This document shows, one piece after another, positions 23,969 through 32,516 of a stretch of DNA of 64,000 nucleotides (the stretch's first letter is position 1; every line of letters begins with the position of its first letter). Position numbers and translations under genes: made by a program. The stretch comes from an uncultured SAR202 cluster bacterium. GTDB taxonomy: Bacteria; Chloroflexota; Dehalococcoidia; Lucifugimonadales; Lucifugimonadaceae. The stretch is taken from assembly GCA_902620405.1 (NCBI GenBank), contig CACNIC010000004.1, positions 1-64,000 of the forward strand. The letters run 5' to 3'. A model generated the notes under the pieces. It was not told where the DNA came from. It did not search any database and worked only from the letters and a program-made list of their open reading frames with translations.

Positions 23969-23972
23969 AAAT

Positions 23973-25130
23973 ATGGATGAAAAACTTGAAAAACATGTAG
24001 ATAAATTAATTGAAGAGAATCTTAAATTTAATAAAAAAAGTTTAGATGCAAAGAGGCAAGCTGCAAAAAAACTAAAAAGAAAAGTTAGGTCATTAAAAAA
24101 TTTAGATGCACCAGATAACGTGGCAATTTATGGTACTGACGGAGGAAATAATACTTTTAATTTTGATGCTGCTGGACTAAAAATTGTAAGAGTTAGTGAC
24201 AATAATAATAATTTTGAAGAAATAGACATAATAACTGATGCGGATAAAAGGCGAGACGCACTTGATAGAAAACACTTGAACTCTAGGGGTGAACCAATTA
24301 AAAATCCATACACAGGAAAAACAACATCAATTGGAAAGTTAATGTATGAGATGGGGTTTTCCTCAATTGAAGAATTTACTCTAATTACACAAAAAAGACT
24401 TGAAGAAGGTTCATCTTGGCTAACTGATTACAGAGAACTTATGGAATGGGCAGTTGTTTATGATTTCCTAGATCATGAATTTTTAAATGATACTGTCATT
24501 CTTAGAGAAGGACAACTAAGGTCAAAGATATTCAGAGGGGAATATTTAATAAAAATTGGTGAGAAAATGAATGAAAAAATTGAGAATCAATATAAGAAAA
24601 GAAAGAAAAATATATTTCTTGCGGCAGTTGCAAAAAGTAGTAGCTTTATTGATATGAACAGAATGGCCTTAAATGAAGAAGGCGTAATGGTAATAGATAA
24701 GCCAGCATGTGTTTATCTCCCTGAAGACCTTGAGCAAAAAGCATTAAATTATGGTGAGTGGGGTATGAGAATAAATTCTTGGGATGGAAAAGGTGAACAC
24801 CCAAAACAAAATTTGTCTGAAGCATATTTGGCAAAATTTGGACCAAGAAAGTATGACAAAGTCTATCCTGTTGATATTTTTTATACTCAACAAAGTAAGG
24901 CAGAAAGGATAATAAGCACTATAGCAAAAGATTCAGAAGGTTCTTATCCGATTCCTTCTTTCCCGAAATCATTACAAAGAGCCCATGACAAATCTGCTAT
25001 AACAGGGCTATTTAAAGATGAATTGAATGCTAAATATATGCAGGGGGTAAGAAAGTATTTAGGTTCCGAAGGATTTGCAATTAATAAGCTTTTAAATGTA
25101 GATTATGAATCAAGGAGGTATGGCTCATGA
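23973..25130 (+). CDS. NurA-like nuclease (divergent)
   Basis: YGTDGGNN (DGS-like motif), VILREGQLR, AAVAKSSS, KVYPVDIFYTQQ; directly upstream of and overlapping a HerA-like ATPase. Confidence 0.6.
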   Translation: MDEKLEKHVDKLIEENLKFNKKSLDAKRQAAKKLKRKVRSLKNLDAPDNVAIYGTDGGNNTFNFDAAGLKIVRVSDNNNNFEEIDIITDADKRRDALDRKHLNSRGEPIKNPYTGKTTSIGKLMYEMGFSSIEEFTLITQKRLEEGSSWLTDYRELMEWAVVYDFLDHEFLNDTVILREGQLRSKIFRGEYLIKIGEKMNEKIENQYKKRKKNIFLAAVAKSSSFIDMNRMALNEEGVMVIDKPACVYLPEDLEQKALNYGEWGMRINSWDGKGEHPKQNLSEAYLAKFGPRKYDKVYPVDIFYTQQSKAERIISTIAKDSEGSYPIPSFPKSLQRAHDKSAITGLFKDELNAKYMQGVRKYLGSEGFAINKLLNVDYESRRYGS

Positions 25131-27139
25131 AGTTTTTAGATCAAAAAAAGTTAGCAGGGTATTTTAAGGGTTATGATGATCAATATGTAGCTAATTTAGT
25201 CTTGCCATATGGACTACAGGATAATCCCACAGAATTGCATGACATTCCAATTATTGGACAATTTATATTAATTGAGCTTCCAAATGATTCAATTACTCTT
25301 GGAAGGATATCAACATTTAATGCAGGCGGCAGGTTAACACAAGCTGATGCTGAAGATACAACCCTTATAGAATTGCAAGAAAGAAGAAATTTACCCACTA
25401 ATATGCTTGATCACTTCCTTAAATTTCATTCAAGAGTCCACATACTTGGGACAATAAAAAATATTTCAACTAGTCCTATCTTTGTTCCAACTCAAAGAAG
25501 AATTCCACCATTTGGTAGCTGGGTATATTTTCCTAGTGATTCCGCACTACAGTTTTTGGCTGGAGAAATTAACAATGATCCAAATGAATTAGGCGATTTA
25601 GCTTTTGGAGACTTTATTCATTCGGATGATACAGAAGTTCATGGAGAGCTTTTTGAAATTATTGATCCAAATATAAAAGTAAAGTTTGATATTAATAACT
25701 TAGTTTCAAAAAGATCGTTTGTTTTTGCGAGAGCAGGTTTTGGGAAATCTAATTTAACAAAGAAGTTATTTAGCGATCTATATGAAGATGATTCAGATAG
25801 TATTGGGACGATAATTTTTGATCCAGAAGGAGAGTATTTTTGGCCTGACAATAAAGGAAGGCCCGGATTATGTGATGTACCACACCTTGAAGATAAATTA
25901 TTAATTTTTACAGATCGAAAAAGCGATAGCGAGTTCTATTCGTCCTTTATTGGTGGAGGTTTATCTTATAATTTTAATGAGTTTTCAGCTTCAGAAATCT
26001 TATCAATTTACTTACATCCTGAGATATTAGATCAGGCTTGGGTAAGAAATTTTATGGATTTGGGGCAAAGAAACTGGACAGAAATAATTGAATTATACCA
26101 AAATAACCCCAATGCAAACGTGCAAGATTTAAAAAATATAATTCAAATTGTAGGTGCTAATCCAGATGCACAATATGCTGCTGCGCACAGTAATCTTAAG
26201 CGTATTTTTAGGAACCATGATTCAAATAATAATTTAATTACCTACGTTTTAGATGCAATGTCCGAGGGAAAAATATGCATTATTGATATATCTATGTTGA
26301 GCTCTTCAAATGGCATGAGACTAATTGGTTTAGTGTTGAGAAATATATTTAATATGGCACAAGAAAGATTTACAAATACTGATAGCGAGCCATTGCAGGT
26401 GATTGCAGCTATTGAAGAAGCTCAGTCAGTTTTGAATTCTTATGGTACGACAGCAGTACCAATTATTGAATGGGTTAAAGAAGGCAGAAAATACGGACTT
26501 GGTTCATTTTTAATCACTCAGCAGCCGGGTAGCATTGATCAAGAAATTTTGAGTCAAGGCGACAATTGGTTTGTTTTCCATCTTTTATCAAAAACTGATT
26601 TAAATGTTTTAGGTAATGCCAATTCAAATTTTTCAGATGATATTCAATTTTTAATTTCAAAAGAGTCTCTTCCTGGAAATGGATTTTATTGGAGTTCTAG
26701 CTCTAATAGACAATACCCAATAGGTTTTAGGGGAAATAATTTTGGAGAAAAAATAAATAATAATTACATTGGTCAATATAAGCCAATTGATCCTGAAAAT
26801 ACTAAAAAGGCTGCTAATACTTTTGCTTCTAAGTTAAAAAAAAGAAAGTCTCCCCAGGAAAGAAAAAAAGGAAAATCAGAAGAAACTATCAATGGGGCCA
26901 ACAATGAAATTAGCAATGATAGCTTTTCAAATGAAAAGTGGACCAATGAAGACTGGGTAATTCAAAGTAAAAAAGGATTAATATTTTCATACAGAGCATC
27001 TAGATACAAAAATTGGTTAGTTGAAGATGTTTATAATGAAGATAAAACTTATATAACCAAATGGTTAAAAAAAATGGATGATGAGGGAGAACTTCCAGCA
27101 TTTTCAAAAAAACAATTAAAAAAATATTTTGAAAAGTAA
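25127..27139 (+). CDS. HerA-like hexameric ATPase / DNA translocase
   Basis: N-terminal HAS-barrel-like region, Walker A FARAGFGKSNLTK, Walker B-like IIFDPEGEY, AAIEEAQSVLN, EGRKYGLGSFLITQQPGSI. Confidence 0.85.
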   Translation: MKFLDQKKLAGYFKGYDDQYVANLVLPYGLQDNPTELHDIPIIGQFILIELPNDSITLGRISTFNAGGRLTQADAEDTTLIELQERRNLPTNMLDHFLKFHSRVHILGTIKNISTSPIFVPTQRRIPPFGSWVYFPSDSALQFLAGEINNDPNELGDLAFGDFIHSDDTEVHGELFEIIDPNIKVKFDINNLVSKRSFVFARAGFGKSNLTKKLFSDLYEDDSDSIGTIIFDPEGEYFWPDNKGRPGLCDVPHLEDKLLIFTDRKSDSEFYSSFIGGGLSYNFNEFSASEILSIYLHPEILDQAWVRNFMDLGQRNWTEIIELYQNNPNANVQDLKNIIQIVGANPDAQYAAAHSNLKRIFRNHDSNNNLITYVLDAMSEGKICIIDISMLSSSNGMRLIGLVLRNIFNMAQERFTNTDSEPLQVIAAIEEAQSVLNSYGTTAVPIIEWVKEGRKYGLGSFLITQQPGSIDQEILSQGDNWFVFHLLSKTDLNVLGNANSNFSDDIQFLISKESLPGNGFYWSSSSNRQYPIGFRGNNFGEKINNNYIGQYKPIDPENTKKAANTFASKLKKRKSPQERKKGKSEETINGANNEISNDSFSNEKWTNEDWVIQSKKGLIFSYRASRYKNWLVEDVYNEDKTYITKWLKKMDDEGELPAFSKKQLKKYFEK

Positions 27140-28220
27140 TAAATTTTCTTTAAATTCAATCTCTCCATACTACACCATGTTCCCTGTTGAATTTCCTTCA
27201 AGAATCATTAAAAGATATGTTAAAAAAAATTTAAATATTTTAGATCCATTTTGCGGTAGAGGTACAACAAATTTTGCTGCTTCAAAACTTGGATATTACT
27301 CAACAGGGATTGATTCAAGTCCAGTTGCAACTGCCATTTCAGAATCAAAGGTAACTTATGTATCCTCTAATAAAGTAATTAAAGAAGCAGAAAATATATT
27401 AAATAAAAATAAAAACATGAAAGTTCCAAAAAATGATTTTTGGAATCTTGCTTATCACCCTGAAGTACTAAATCAGATTTGTTTGCTTCGAGAAGAATTG
27501 CTAAATAAATGTGACACACCTGAAAGAAAAGGACTTAGGGCAATAATTTTAGGTTCTCTTCATGGGCCAAAATTAAAATATGAACAAAGCTATCTTTCAA
27601 ATCAATGCCCGAGAACTTTTGCTCCAAAACCAAAATATGCAAGCAATTTTTGGAAAAAAAGAGGACTTCTGCCTGACAATGTAGATGTAATTCAAGTTAT
27701 CCAAAAAAGAGCACTTAGATATTTTAATGATGAAATAAAAGTTGAAGGCATGATAATAAAAGGGGACAGCAGGGATAAAAATTTATTTAAAAAAATAAAT
27801 AAAAAATTTGATTGGATTATCACTTCACCCCCTTATTTTGGAATGAATACTTACATTCAAGATCAATGGATTAGGAATTGGTTCGTTGGTGGTAGTCATG
27901 AAGTTGATTACACTTCGCCAGATCAGATAATGCATTCAAATGAAGAAATGTATTTGGAAGATTTATCTTCAGTTTGGAAGAATATAGAAAAAGTTTCAAA
28001 TAATGGTGCGAGGCTAATAATAAGATTTGGAGACCTTCCTTCAAAAGAATCAAATGCAAGAGATTTAATTAAAAGGTCTTTAATAAATACAAACTGGAAA
28101 AACATCAGAGCATATAAAGAAGGTTTGAGCTCAAAAGGCAGAAGGCAATCTGATTACTTCTTAAAAAATAGCTCGCAACCTAAGCAAGAATATAACGTTT
28201 GGGCTACTTTAAAAGTTTAA
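27129..28220 (+). CDS. DNA methyltransferase (N4-cytosine or N6-adenine type) with motif order X-I-IV
   Basis: MFPVEFPSRIIKRYV (motif X-like), ILDPFCGRGTTNFAASKLG (motif I), DWIITSPPYFGMNTYIQ (motif IV); TTG start, 11-nt overlap with HerA gene. Confidence 0.82.
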   Translation: MKSNKFSLNSISPYYTMFPVEFPSRIIKRYVKKNLNILDPFCGRGTTNFAASKLGYYSTGIDSSPVATAISESKVTYVSSNKVIKEAENILNKNKNMKVPKNDFWNLAYHPEVLNQICLLREELLNKCDTPERKGLRAIILGSLHGPKLKYEQSYLSNQCPRTFAPKPKYASNFWKKRGLLPDNVDVIQVIQKRALRYFNDEIKVEGMIIKGDSRDKNLFKKINKKFDWIITSPPYFGMNTYIQDQWIRNWFVGGSHEVDYTSPDQIMHSNEEMYLEDLSSVWKNIEKVSNNGARLIIRFGDLPSKESNARDLIKRSLINTNWKNIRAYKEGLSSKGRRQSDYFLKNSSQPKQEYNVWATLKV

Positions 28221-28221
28221 T

Positions 28222-29397
28222 TTACCAGTTAGTAAAGGCTCCATCATTTCTTGTTAGGAAAGGTGGGAATCCATCTAAAGTTGCATGATATTTTTCTGCA
28301 ACTTCAGAATCAAATTCGATTCCAAGTCCCGGTAAATCATTACACCATGCATACCCATCTTCCCAAGAAATTTGAACTGGAAAAATATCATTTGCAGTCG
28401 TTCCAGGTTTCTTAGGCATTTCTTGAACCCCAACATTTGTGGATGCCATACAAAGTGAAACGCATGCAGCAGCACTTATTGCTCCCAATGGATTATGAGG
28501 CACAATATCTATGTAATGGGTCTCTGCCCAATTAGTTATTTTTTTTGATTCAGTAATACCACCTGCTATACAGAAATCAATTCTTGCATAATTAATTAAA
28601 TCTTCTTCAATTACTTGCCTGAATTGCCATTTACTAGACCATTGCTCTCCGGCAGCAATTGGAAGTGAAGTGTGTTTTGAAAGATTTCTATATGCATGAG
28701 GACTTTCAGACCTTAAAGGGTCTTCAATGAAAAATGGGTTAAACTCTTCAAGTCTTTTACATAAATCTATTACGTGAGCAGTATCAAGCCTGGTATGCAC
28801 ATCGAGGCAAATATTTATGTCATCTCCAACTGCATCCCTGATTTTTGCAAACTGCTCAGTTGTTAATTTAACTGATTCTGTTGGTTCTAAAATTCCAGGA
28901 TTCTTATATGTTGTTTGATCAGTTTTTACTGCATCATGAGTTTCTAATAATCCAAATCTAACAAATTTCCATCCTTCATCAGTTGTTTTTTTGCAATTTT
29001 CAACTAAAGCATCAGTCCCTCTTCCAAAATTATGAGGATAGCAAACTACTTTTTCTCTAACTGCTCCACCAAGTAATTTATATAGAGGCATATCAACTGA
29101 CTTTGCTTTCAAGTCCCAAAGTGCAATATCTATTGCGGCAATTGCAGATGAATAGATTACTCCAGGTGGAAAAAAATTTCCTCGAAACATTATTTGCCAT
29201 AATTTTTCAGATTCCCAGGGGTCTTCTCCAATAAGTCTTTTTTCAAGGTGTTCAATAGCAGAAATTACTGTTTTTCCCATATTTGGAACACCAACTTCAC
29301 CAAGCCCTTTAAGTCCATTATCAGTACATACTTCAATATATAAAGAAATTCTTCCATCGTGAGAAAGAGGGTATTTTTTTATCTCTGTAATTTTCAT
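28222..29397 (-). CDS. Enolase superfamily (mandelate racemase/galactonate dehydratase-like) protein
   Basis: CLDVHTRLD, FFIEDPLRSE, AAGEQW metal-ligand motifs; start placed at MKITEIKKYP, preceded by AAAGGAGCA. Confidence 0.88.
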   Translation of the reverse strand: MKITEIKKYPLSHDGRISLYIEVCTDNGLKGLGEVGVPNMGKTVISAIEHLEKRLIGEDPWESEKLWQIMFRGNFFPPGVIYSSAIAAIDIALWDLKAKSVDMPLYKLLGGAVREKVVCYPHNFGRGTDALVENCKKTTDEGWKFVRFGLLETHDAVKTDQTTYKNPGILEPTESVKLTTEQFAKIRDAVGDDINICLDVHTRLDTAHVIDLCKRLEEFNPFFIEDPLRSESPHAYRNLSKHTSLPIAAGEQWSSKWQFRQVIEEDLINYARIDFCIAGGITESKKITNWAETHYIDIVPHNPLGAISAAACVSLCMASTNVGVQEMPKKPGTTANDIFPVQISWEDGYAWCNDLPGLGIEFDSEVAEKYHATLDGFPPFLTRNDGAFTNW

Positions 29398-29410
29398 TTC
29401 TTTGCTCCTT

Positions 29411-30169
29411 TTAGACAGTGAAGTAGGATCCTCCATTTGGAGAAATTATTTGGCCTGTTAAATAGTTTTGATCATCTGATGCAAGCATTAATGCAATTGA
29501 TGCAACATCTTTTTCTACACCAGGTCTTTTAAGAAGAGTAAGATTAACTACCAATCCTCCACCACCTGATTTTAATTCTTCTCTTGTAAGATCAGTTTCA
29601 ATAATTCCAGGAGAAATGCTGTTAACAAAGATATTGTGTTCTGCTCCATAGCGAGCTAAATTTTGAGTTATTGAATGAAGTCCTGCTTTTGATGCTGCAT
29701 AATGCGGGGTAGTTGGTCCACCATAAAGACCTGATACAGAACCAATATTAATAATTCTTCCACCACCATTTTTTTTCATTATTGGAAATACTTCTCTTGA
29801 GCAAAAGAAAGGACCTTTAAGGTTAACAGCCATTATGTCATCCCAGTCTTCTTCTTTTACGTCATCCATTTTAGCTTGCCTATTTATTCCGGCATTATTT
29901 ACAAGAACATCTATTTTAGAAAATTCATTTTCTACATTAGAAACCATTTTTTTGATTGAATCTAGATTTGAAGCTTCTAAATGAATAGCCATAGATTTAG
30001 AACCGTGAATCTCTATGTTTTTACATACTTCAATGGCTTTATTTTCATCGCTATTGTAAGTAATAATCACTGCTTCTGCTCCAGATTGAGCAAAAGTAAG
30101 AGCCATTGATTCTCCAAGACCTCTACTGCCTCCAGTAACAAGACATACTTTTCCGTTAAGTTCAAACAT
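29411..30169 (-). CDS. SDR family oxidoreductase
   Basis: TGGSRGLGESMA, NNAG, YAASKAGLHS, NSISPGIIET motifs. Confidence 0.92.
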   Translation of the reverse strand: MFELNGKVCLVTGGSRGLGESMALTFAQSGAEAVIITYNSDENKAIEVCKNIEIHGSKSMAIHLEASNLDSIKKMVSNVENEFSKIDVLVNNAGINRQAKMDDVKEEDWDDIMAVNLKGPFFCSREVFPIMKKNGGGRIINIGSVSGLYGGPTTPHYAASKAGLHSITQNLARYGAEHNIFVNSISPGIIETDLTREELKSGGGGLVVNLTLLKRPGVEKDVASIALMLASDDQNYLTGQIISPNGGSYFTV

Positions 30170-30171
30170 TT

Positions 30172-31326
30172 TTAATCTTTCTCTAGGGGTTTAATTATTA
30201 ATCCTGCACCTTCTCTTCTTGGAAAAGGGTAGGATTCGTGTTTTGGAGTTGAGTGCTTTTCAACTTTTAATTCGTTTAATTTATCGAAATCAACATCTAT
30301 TCCAAATCCAGGTTTATCGCCAAGTATTATTTTTCCATCAGCGATGTGATGATCAGTATTAAAAAATAATTCTCTTCCATTATCTACAACTTCCATCATC
30401 ATGTGATTTGGAAGATTTGTAGCCAGGTGAGCCATGGTATTTCCAGGGCAATTCATCATAGCAACAGGAAGCTCATATGCGTATGCCATATTTGCAACTT
30501 TCATTGCGCCTGTAAGACCTGTTGTTCCCATTCCAACTTCAACTATATCAACAGCACCGTTATCAATTAATGGCATAAACTCAGCTAAATCATTAATGTT
30601 TTCGCCAGTCGCAACTGCAGCTTTTATATTGTCTGACACTTTTTTTAGCCCATTATAATCCCATCTTCTCGCAGGCTCTTCAGCCCAAGTAATATCAAAT
30701 TTTTCTTCAAGTTTGCTGATAAATCTTATTGCTTGTTTTGGAGACCAGTATTCATTGCTATCTATGCATAGCAAAGGTCTGTCACTTGCTTTTGAAAGAG
30801 CATCTTTTACTATCCCTAACCTTCTTTCATCTGAATCTAAATCTAGACCAACTTTTAATTTTCCTGCATCAATCCCCACATCAGCCATTCTTGAATAAAA
30901 TTTGTAAATTTCATCATCTGTTAAATTCAAATCTATTCCTGATGCATATGCCTTTACTGAATTAGTAGACGACCCAAGTAATTTCCATAGTGGTTGGTCT
31001 GCAATTTTTGCTTTAAGGTCCCATAATGCTAAATCTATTGCTGAAATTGCATCACATCTTTCGCCTTCATTTCCGCCTTTAAAAACAAGGTCATTCATTT
31101 CTTTCCATAATCCAATAACTGACCTAGGGTCTTTCCCTTCTAGTAATGGGAATAATTTTTCAACGTATCCATTTCCAATTAATGAATAACCAGTTATGCC
31201 TTCATCAGTAAATATTTCTAAGAAACTTCCAGGGAGCCTTTTACTTCCATATGGTCCATTCGCATCACCAATAGCTCTCTCAGCTTCACCTTCCCAATAT
31301 GTAATTTTAAAATCAGTTATTTTCAT
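30172..31326 (-). CDS. Enolase superfamily (mandelate racemase-like) protein, paralog A
   Basis: GKLKVGL, CIDSNEYW, WAEEPARRWD, ATGEN motifs. Confidence 0.88.
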   Translation of the reverse strand: MKITDFKITYWEGEAERAIGDANGPYGSKRLPGSFLEIFTDEGITGYSLIGNGYVEKLFPLLEGKDPRSVIGLWKEMNDLVFKGGNEGERCDAISAIDLALWDLKAKIADQPLWKLLGSSTNSVKAYASGIDLNLTDDEIYKFYSRMADVGIDAGKLKVGLDLDSDERRLGIVKDALSKASDRPLLCIDSNEYWSPKQAIRFISKLEEKFDITWAEEPARRWDYNGLKKVSDNIKAAVATGENINDLAEFMPLIDNGAVDIVEVGMGTTGLTGAMKVANMAYAYELPVAMMNCPGNTMAHLATNLPNHMMMEVVDNGRELFFNTDHHIADGKIILGDKPGFGIDVDFDKLNELKVEKHSTPKHESYPFPRREGAGLIIKPLEKD

Positions 31327-32516
31327 TGGTTTAATCTTTCTGAATTTGCTATCTCTTCTTTGCTTGGTGCAACTTGGTACAATCCTGCTCCAGGCCTTCT
31401 TCCAAAAGGACTTGATTGAGTTGATGGAGACGTTTTTTCTACTTTTATTTTTTCTAAAATATCAAAATTTATTTCCACTCCAATTCCAGGTTTATTTCCA
31501 GGAATTGCATAACCATTTTCAAATGTAACATCCCATGTCATGCAAGGATCTGGTTCTTCTTGGGTAATTTCCATGATCATAAAGTTTGGAATCGCGGTTG
31601 CCATATGTGCATGGACATGCCCAAAAGATCCACCCAAAGTTACAGGTAATTCAAAACCATATGCTGCATCTGCTAATTGCATTGCTGTAGTCACTCCGCC
31701 CATTCCTGAGCTTACCTGAATAACATCTGCTGATTTGTAATGAAAATAAGGAAGAAAATCTCCCATTGTTTTCAGATTTTCTCCAGCACAAACTGCAGTT
31801 TTAATTCCATCAGATACTTTTTTTAATCCAATAAAATCCCACCTTCTTGCTGGCTCTTCAGCCCAAGTAAGATCAAATGTTTGTTCTATTTCAGAAATAA
31901 ATCTAATTGCTTGTTTAGGTGACCAGTACTCATTGGAATCGATCATAATTAATGGGTTATCACTATTTACCTTTAAAGCATCTCTCATAATTCCAATTCT
32001 TCTGATATCGTCATCTTGATTAAGCCCAACTTTAAGTTTACCTCCGTCAAATCCCCAGCTTGCCATTTTTTCATACCATTCTTTTAAATTTTCATCGTTC
32101 ATAGGAATGTCTAATCCGCTTGCATAGGCTCTTACTTTAGGATTTAATCCTCCAAGAGTTTTCCATAAAGGCTCATTGTTTGATTTTGCTTTCAAGTCCC
32201 ATAATGCGATATCTAAAGCAGAAATTGCCTCATTTATCATTCCTCCATGCCCACCTTTAAATGCAAAATCCATCATTTGCTTTGTGATACCTTTCACATT
32301 CGATGGATCTTTACCTTTTACTGCTCTATTAAACATGGATTCAACCAAGGGTTTTGCTGCAGCCCCAGATGATGAATAACCTGTTAATCCTTCATCAGTT
32401 TTTACTTCAATGAGAAGGTTAGATTGAAGCTTTCTTCCTGCAGGCGAATTTGCATCCCCAACAACTCTGTTATTTTCAAATTCATACAAATGAGTTTTTA
32501 ATTCAGTAATTTTCAT
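31323..32516 (-). CDS. Enolase superfamily (mandelate racemase-like) protein, paralog B
   Basis: GKLKVGL, MIDSNEYW, WAEEPARRWD, CAGEN motifs; overlaps paralog A by 4 nt. Confidence 0.88.
   Translation of the reverse strand: MKITELKTHLYEFENNRVVGDANSPAGRKLQSNLLIEVKTDEGLTGYSSSGAAAKPLVESMFNRAVKGKDPSNVKGITKQMMDFAFKGGHGGMINEAISALDIALWDLKAKSNNEPLWKTLGGLNPKVRAYASGLDIPMNDENLKEWYEKMASWGFDGGKLKVGLNQDDDIRRIGIMRDALKVNSDNPLIMIDSNEYWSPKQAIRFISEIEQTFDLTWAEEPARRWDFIGLKKVSDGIKTAVCAGENLKTMGDFLPYFHYKSADVIQVSSGMGGVTTAMQLADAAYGFELPVTLGGSFGHVHAHMATAIPNFMIMEITQEEPDPCMTWDVTFENGYAIPGNKPGIGVEINFDILEKIKVEKTSPSTQSSPFGRRPGAGLYQVAPSKEEIANSERLNQ

What the first reader, a model, noticed from the sequence alone, without database searches (positions are those of the whole stretch)
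23973..28220. Three-gene NurA-like / HerA / DNA methyltransferase cassette: candidate DNA-processing or defence system
Seen directly: three plus-strand genes with overlapping ends (4 nt and 11 nt), so probably translationally coupled. They encode a divergent NurA-like protein, a HerA-type ATPase (FARAGFGKSN; IIFDPEGEY) and an SPPY-type DNA methyltransferase. Established: HerA-NurA acts in end resection in archaea, and HerA pairs with various effectors (SIR2, DUF4297) in bacterial anti-phage systems. Inference: a modification enzyme fused transcriptionally to a resection motor and nuclease looks like self/non-self discrimination, with methylation protecting host DNA. I cannot tell whether this trio has been described.
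Basis: partly seen in the sequence, partly recalled or inferred. Interest (0 to 1): 0.8.

Follow-up and report, generated by a model that had tools for sequence, protein, structure and literature searches.

The report
Methyltransferase-linked NurA–HerA DNA-degrading cassette
Three neighbouring genes encode a DNA-cutting enzyme, a ring-shaped DNA motor and an enzyme that chemically marks DNA; the same trio recurs, scattered, in very different bacteria and probably one archaeon, and most likely destroys unmarked foreign DNA, although this has not been shown by experiment.

Summary
Three intact, overlapping plus-strand genes (23973-28220) encode a NurA-fold nuclease, a HerA-type hexameric ATPase and an SPPY-type DNA methyltransferase. 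Single-sequence searches gave the first gene no name. A 68-member family profile hits only TdpB in the PDB, half the members match Pfam NurA, and the AlphaFold model's best PDB matches are TdpB and Sulfolobus NurA. The pair is co-conserved: NurA directly precedes HerA in 79 of 80 loci (the 80th is cut by a contig end) across about 15 phyla, and the same methyltransferase subfamily is linked in 57, in three gene arrangements. In five loci a D12-class methyltransferase replaces it. In the window's genome the trio fills exactly a site that is empty in close relatives, with no mobile-element genes. The nearest solved relatives are TdpA/TdpB. A TdpA-like operon found here (PAPS-reductase-like gene, NurA, HerA) has the same logic with another modification gene. 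Best explanation: an R-M-like HerA-NurA system in which methylation marks self DNA (about 0.6). Main rival: DNA donation, because the Thermus tdtA operon (NurA, HerA-like TdtA, PF01555 methylase) serves transjugation. That paper also means the arrangement is not wholly undescribed. Mechanism and phage defence remain untested.

The parts
23973..25130 (+). NurA-family nuclease gene (385 aa); DGG motif with D56, E158, K221 and the Q335-A337-H338 region conserved; family D179 is E here
24138..24140 (+). codon of D56, invariant in 68 of 68 relatives; likely counterpart of the catalytic Asp (D49) of Thermococcus NurA (equivalence inferred)
   Evidence: D49A loses nuclease activity, PMC12977600
24507..24509 (+). 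codon of E179, where the other 67 family members have D (DGLLR motif)
25127..27139 (+). HerA-type hexameric ATPase gene (670 aa), DUF87; the family shares an N-terminal region and a long variable C-terminal tail
25736..25750 (+). Walker A (GFGKS, residues 204-208), with G204, G206, K207 and S208 invariant
26414..26419 (+). Walker B acidic pair (E430-E431), invariant
27129..28220 (+). DNA methyltransferase gene (363 aa), motif I before SPPY (permuted, alpha-like order), probably N4-cytosine type
27243..27266 (+). AdoMet-binding motif DPFCGRGT (residues 39-46); residues 39-45 counted invariant in 56 of 56
27822..27836 (+). catalytic motif TSPPY (residues 232-236), invariant
23969..28221 (+). whole insertion: it lies between the stop codons of two convergent genes (SDR and mandelate-racemase-like) that are about 5-12 bp apart in same-genus genomes

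Best explanation
The cassette is a compact restriction-modification-like system of the TdpAB kind. HerA forms a ring motor that threads double-stranded DNA into a NurA dimer, which destroys it. The methyltransferase marks host DNA (probably N4-methylcytosine), and marked DNA is spared. Because a closed ring loads best at DNA ends, the natural targets would be linear incoming DNA; methylation would protect the host at broken ends. Shown here: gene identities, folds of genes 1 and 3, intact motifs, co-conservation, swapping of the modification gene, horizontal movement. Inferred: complex formation, the type of base modified, that the mark blocks degradation, and that phages are the target.
For: NurA sits directly upstream of HerA in 79 of 80 loci. 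The same methyltransferase subfamily is linked in 57 of 80, in three arrangements (about 35 downstream on the same strand, 11 downstream convergent, 11 upstream), so linkage has been kept through rearrangement. In about 400 genomes of the phylum this subfamily (E<1e-100) occurs only in three, all carrying the pair, against six carrying it. Four genomes without a linked copy carry it elsewhere. HerA and methyltransferase distances correlate (r=0.64, 0 of 2000 permutations; NurA-HerA 0.91). Replacement modification genes occur: D12 methyltransferase in five loci, a beta-type N6_N4 enzyme in L020. A Chloroflexota TdpA homologue (52-56% identical to TdpA) lies in an operon PAPS-reductase-like gene, NurA, HerA. 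Closest solved relatives are TdpA and TdpB. Archaeal HerA-NurA degrades both strands of dsDNA and is argued to be antiviral (PMC12977600). Neighbours elsewhere include type I, III and IV restriction genes; controls do not.
Against: No methylome, biochemistry or phage data. Eleven of 80 loci show no linked MTase of either class on adequate flanks, and the genome search looked only for the main MTase subfamily. The window copy is not in a defence island, its HerA is a long branch, and its NurA has E in place of a near-invariant D. In Thermus a comparable operon acts in DNA donation. How a sequence-blind end-degrading complex would read methylation is unknown.
Confidence: 0.6

Rival explanations
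1. A DNA-donation (transjugation-like) module: HerA pumps DNA out of the cell, NurA trims it, and the methyltransferase marks transfer sites or protects the donor, as proposed for the tdtA operon of Thermus thermophilus ICEth1.
For: TdtA operon: type IIG enzyme, NurA-like (377 aa), HerA-like TdtA (568 aa), PF01555 methylase (410 aa); loss of TdtA abolishes and loss of NurA cuts DNA donation 4-5 orders of magnitude (PMC5365140). The window's gene order is the same.
Against: The window insertion has no integrase, direct-repeat ends, tRNA target or type IIG gene. Not found in 72,556 plasmids or 50,697 phages. Donation in Thermus relies on recipient competence, unlikely to be shared by about 15 phyla. 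Whether TdtA belongs to the same subfamily could not be tested.
Confidence: 0.15
2. A DNA end-processing or repair module in which methylation works like a Chi-type stop signal during break repair, with defence at most a side effect.
For: HerA-NurA was long viewed as an end-resection pair in archaea and Deinococcus (literature reviewed in PMC12977600). Methylation-gated end degradation would protect a broken chromosome.
Against: Patchy: absent from the rest of the genus and almost the whole class. Modification genes are swapped. The Thermococcus study finds double-strand degradation unsuited to resection.
Confidence: 0.12
3. The window copy is a decaying or inactive relict of such a system.
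For: E179 replaces D in 67 of 67 other relatives; the HerA has by far the longest branches with L011.
Against: All three frames are open, Walker A/B, methyltransferase motifs and the other NurA invariants are intact, and GC matches the genome. Asp to Glu can still bind metal (general knowledge).
Confidence: 0.08

Closest known systems
TdpA-TdpB (with TdpC), phosphorothioate-linked HerA-NurA system (PDB 8wet, 8wfd)
   Same: Closest solved relatives of both HerA (2.5e-19; profile 1.1e-32) and NurA (profile 5.4e-6; fold 3.2e-8); modification gene next to NurA and HerA in the Chloroflexota example L173
   Different: Only about 22-25% identity; HerA here is about 100 aa longer; the modification gene is a methyltransferase, not a PAPS-reductase-like enzyme. 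TdpC function is from memory; no paper on it was held
tdtA operon of ICEth1, Thermus thermophilus HB27 (PMC5365140)
   Same: NurA-like, HerA/FtsK-like ATPase and PF01555 methylase in this order
   Different: Carried by an excising element with integrase, repeats and a type IIG enzyme; reported role is DNA donation; TdtA is 568 aa. Subfamily not tested for lack of sequence
HerA-NurA of archaea and Deinococcus
   Same: Same two protein families, same fold of NurA
   Different: No linked methyltransferase in these systems as described; low sequence similarity; regarded as repair enzymes until recently
SIR2-HerA (Nezha) and DUF4297-HerA
   Same: HerA motor coupled to a variable effector in phage defence
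   Different: Effector is not NurA; no modification gene; HerA is more distant
DndFGH / 'HerA-FtsK capture' systems (PMC10853773) and BREX-related capture systems (PMC12839542)
   Same: HerA/FtsK motors in defence; modification chemistry is exchangeable (methylases in place of phosphorothioation)
   Different: Neither paper mentions NurA; many more components

Membership tests
HerA-NurA pair | NurA fold in the partner gene | tested here: met
   Pfam NurA in 34 of 68 members; Foldseek TdpB and Sso NurA
HerA-NurA pair | HerA ATPase with intact Walker motifs adjacent to NurA | tested here: met
   DUF87 2.9e-22; 79 of 80 loci
HerA-NurA pair | hexamer-dimer complex degrading DNA | not testable with these tools
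   needs biochemistry
Tdp system | HerA and NurA related to TdpA and TdpB | tested here: met
   closest solved relatives, though remote
Tdp system | linked phosphorothioation gene (PAPS-reductase-like) | tested here: not met
   neighbours are SDR and racemase genes; the third gene is a methyltransferase; contrast L173
Restriction-modification system | DNA methyltransferase genetically linked to a nuclease | tested here: met
Restriction-modification system | methylation protects DNA from the nuclease | not testable with these tools
   needs methylome and nuclease assay
Restriction-modification system | diversifying target-recognition domain | tested here: inconclusive
   stretch 136-180 between motifs I and IV is strongly conserved, 76-90 and 196-225 vary
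ICEth1/TdtA transfer element | integrase, direct repeats, tRNA target, type IIG enzyme | tested here: not met
   insertion 23969-28221 contains the three genes only
ICEth1/TdtA transfer element | TdtA and methylase of the same subfamilies | not testable with these tools
   no Thermus genome reached; plasmid search with a TdpA fragment empty
SIR2-HerA / DUF4297-HerA | SIR2 or DUF4297 effector | tested here: not met
   gene 1 is NurA

The most novel reading that the evidence does not exclude
A widespread class of ATP-dependent restriction-modification systems in which a ring translocase and NurA degrade DNA from its ends and read base methylation (rather than phosphorothioation) as the self signal. 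The modification gene would be a replaceable module (N4-cytosine type, D12 adenine type, phosphorothioation), possibly with one target site conserved across phyla.
Probability: 0.4. Interest if true: 0.78.

Novelty: new variant of a known kind. Interest (0 to 1): 0.6.

Why it matters
If right, HerA-NurA, long taught as a repair pair, is in these bacteria the restriction half of a modular system, with methylation and phosphorothioation as exchangeable self marks. It would be a simple two-subunit motor-nuclease whose response to a base mark could be studied directly, and it would explain many unannotated NurA-like genes beside HerA. The NurA half is missed by single-sequence Pfam and PADLOC searches with the window protein, so current defence catalogues may overlook the system.

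Tried and rejected
Single-sequence searches with gene 1 (Pfam, NCBIfam, PHROGs, PDB, plasmids, phages, viral contigs) found nothing useful; a weak PADLOC PDC-M38B hit (0.012) was not pursued because only one of 68 relatives shows it. Mobile-element origin of the window copy: no integrase, repeats or foreign GC. The idea that every locus has a linked methyltransferase: false for 11 of 80. Foldseek of the methyltransferase gave only generic Rossmann methyltransferases and Dam, so it did not settle the base modified. First HerA tree had absurd branch lengths (a fragment row included, mixture model); rebuilt without it, the window still has a long branch, so its exact position is not used. The attempt to reach Thermus or Chloracidobacterium relatives of tdtA failed. 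The 440-aa gene beside HerA in L174 has NurA-like motif order, but profile comparison does not support it. Paper searches for TdpAB found nothing. Iyer 2004 on FtsK-HerA was not held, so earlier notice of the trio there cannot be excluded.

Full report
What is there. Three plus-strand genes at 23973-25130, 25127-27139 and 27129-28220 overlap by 4 and 11 nt. The second is a HerA-type ATPase (DUF87, 2.9e-22) and the third a DNA methyltransferase (N6_N4_Mtase, 2.7e-16). The first has no family hit on its own.

Gene 1 is a NurA. Relatives were collected through HerA and aligned (A3, 68 sequences). Thirty-four of 68 match Pfam NurA. The profile hits a single relevant PDB chain, TdpB, at 5.4e-6. The AlphaFold2 model (pLDDT 90) finds TdpB (3.2e-8), Sulfolobus NurA (7e-5) and Thermococcus NurA. 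Residues D56, E158, G180, R183, K221 and D320 are invariant; the window alone has E instead of D at 179.

HerA and methyltransferase. Among solved structures the window HerA is closest to TdpA (2.5e-19), then archaeal HerA; with a family profile the gap widens (1.1e-32 against 1.2e-17). The methyltransferase has the AdoMet motif DPFCGRGT before TSPPY, the order of permuted (alpha-like) enzymes; both are invariant in its subfamily. SPPY and the hits to cytosine-N4 methyltransferases 8s9n and 8s9m suggest N4-cytosine, but adenine enzymes also match, so the base is an inference.

Co-conservation. The genome scan found 220 HerA relatives and kept the best 80. NurA is directly upstream of HerA in 79; the exception is cut by a contig end. 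The same methyltransferase subfamily is linked in 57 of the 80: about 35 downstream on the same strand, 11 convergent downstream, 11 upstream. Three further loci are cut too short to tell. Four loci without it have it elsewhere in the genome, two of them on the same contig number beyond the fetched flank. Five have a D12 (Dam-like) methyltransferase convergent to HerA; three of these were confirmed by Pfam. Eleven show no linked MTase of either class. In the phylum sample the subfamily occurs at E<1e-100 in three genomes, all among the six with the pair; if both calls drew the same 400 genomes, which the shared handles suggest, the chance of this is about 2e-6 by hypergeometric count (my arithmetic). 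Distance matrices correlate (NurA-HerA 0.91, HerA-methyltransferase 0.64, none of 2000 permutations as high), although shared descent alone also produces such correlation.

Mobility. The pair is absent from nine other genomes of the genus and from all other family members searched. In three same-genus genomes (L127, L128, L129) the flanking SDR and racemase genes are adjacent, about 5-12 bp apart; the window carries the trio exactly between them, with no integrase, repeats or GC shift. A gain in this lineage is the simplest reading; loss in the others is not excluded. Elsewhere, Cupriavidus cauae and Pandoraea nosoerga share 20.65 kb around the trio at 99.97% identity, and in L024/L036 similarity (90.7%) covers exactly the trio and stops at its borders. 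The HerA tree mixes phyla and places an archaeal bin (L085) among Bacillota. Some records are metagenome bins and may be misassigned.

Surroundings elsewhere. Against PADLOC at 1e-20, 110 neighbour proteins matched 139 models including type I, III and IV restriction genes; 104 control proteins from the same or comparable genomes matched 27, mostly one kinase-like protein. This is a modest enrichment: models are redundant, and the neighbour set includes the D12 methyltransferases of L052 and L072. In the window itself the neighbours are metabolic.

How it may work. Thermococcus HerA-NurA pumps double-stranded DNA into NurA and degrades both strands, and its authors doubt a resection role and suggest antiviral function (PMC12977600). 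Adding a linked, exchangeable modification gene points to marked self DNA. A Chloroflexota operon found here shows the parallel: a PAPS-reductase-like gene, a NurA (37% identical to a TdpB fragment) and a HerA 52-56% identical to TdpA. I know the phosphorothioate and phage-defence role of Tdp only from memory; no paper on it was held. A ring motor needing DNA ends would spare the circular chromosome and meet linear invaders; the mark would matter at breaks. These steps are inferred.

Rivals. The tdtA operon of Thermus (type IIG enzyme, NurA-like, TdtA, PF01555 methylase) serves DNA donation, with large defects in tdtA and nurA mutants (PMC5365140). It is prior notice of the gene order and the strongest rival for function. 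The window cassette lacks the integrase, repeats and type IIG gene of that element. Sequence membership could not be tested. Repair with a methylation stop signal remains possible.

Novelty. Papers found on HerA defence and on HerA-FtsK capture do not mention a NurA-HerA-methyltransferase system. The library lacks most subscription papers, including the 2004 FtsK-HerA survey. I rate it a new variant of a known kind.

Noticed in passing
L173:9305-13245: Chloroflexota operon of PAPS-reductase-like gene, TdpB-like NurA and TdpA-like HerA, apparently a full Tdp system outside Thermus.
   Followed up: partly
L174:8363-12530: D12 methyltransferase, HerA and a 440-aa gene with NurA-like motif order but no significant profile match; a possible further variant.
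   Followed up: partly
L040 and L041, positions 1-20654: 20.65 kb with the trio is 99.97% identical between Cupriavidus cauae and Pandoraea nosoerga, a very recent transfer (or contamination).
   Followed up: no
L048:5469-8720 and L049:5324-8692: A Sacsin/NO VEIN-domain gene directly upstream of NurA in Bordetella genomosp. 2 and Noviherbaspirillum, with the methyltransferase further away; possibly a composite system.
   Followed up: no
L011:11177-12301: A DruA-domain gene (Druantia) directly upstream of the NurA-HerA pair instead of a methyltransferase.
   Followed up: no
L020:10106-12660: A beta-type N6_N4 methyltransferase and a 505-aa HEAT-repeat gene upstream of NurA-HerA.
   Followed up: no
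window 28222-32516: Three mandelate-racemase/enolase-like genes and an SDR gene in a row; the genome has 24 matches to one of them. Matches in related genomes G005, G002 and G004 are reported with an in-frame TGA.
   Followed up: no
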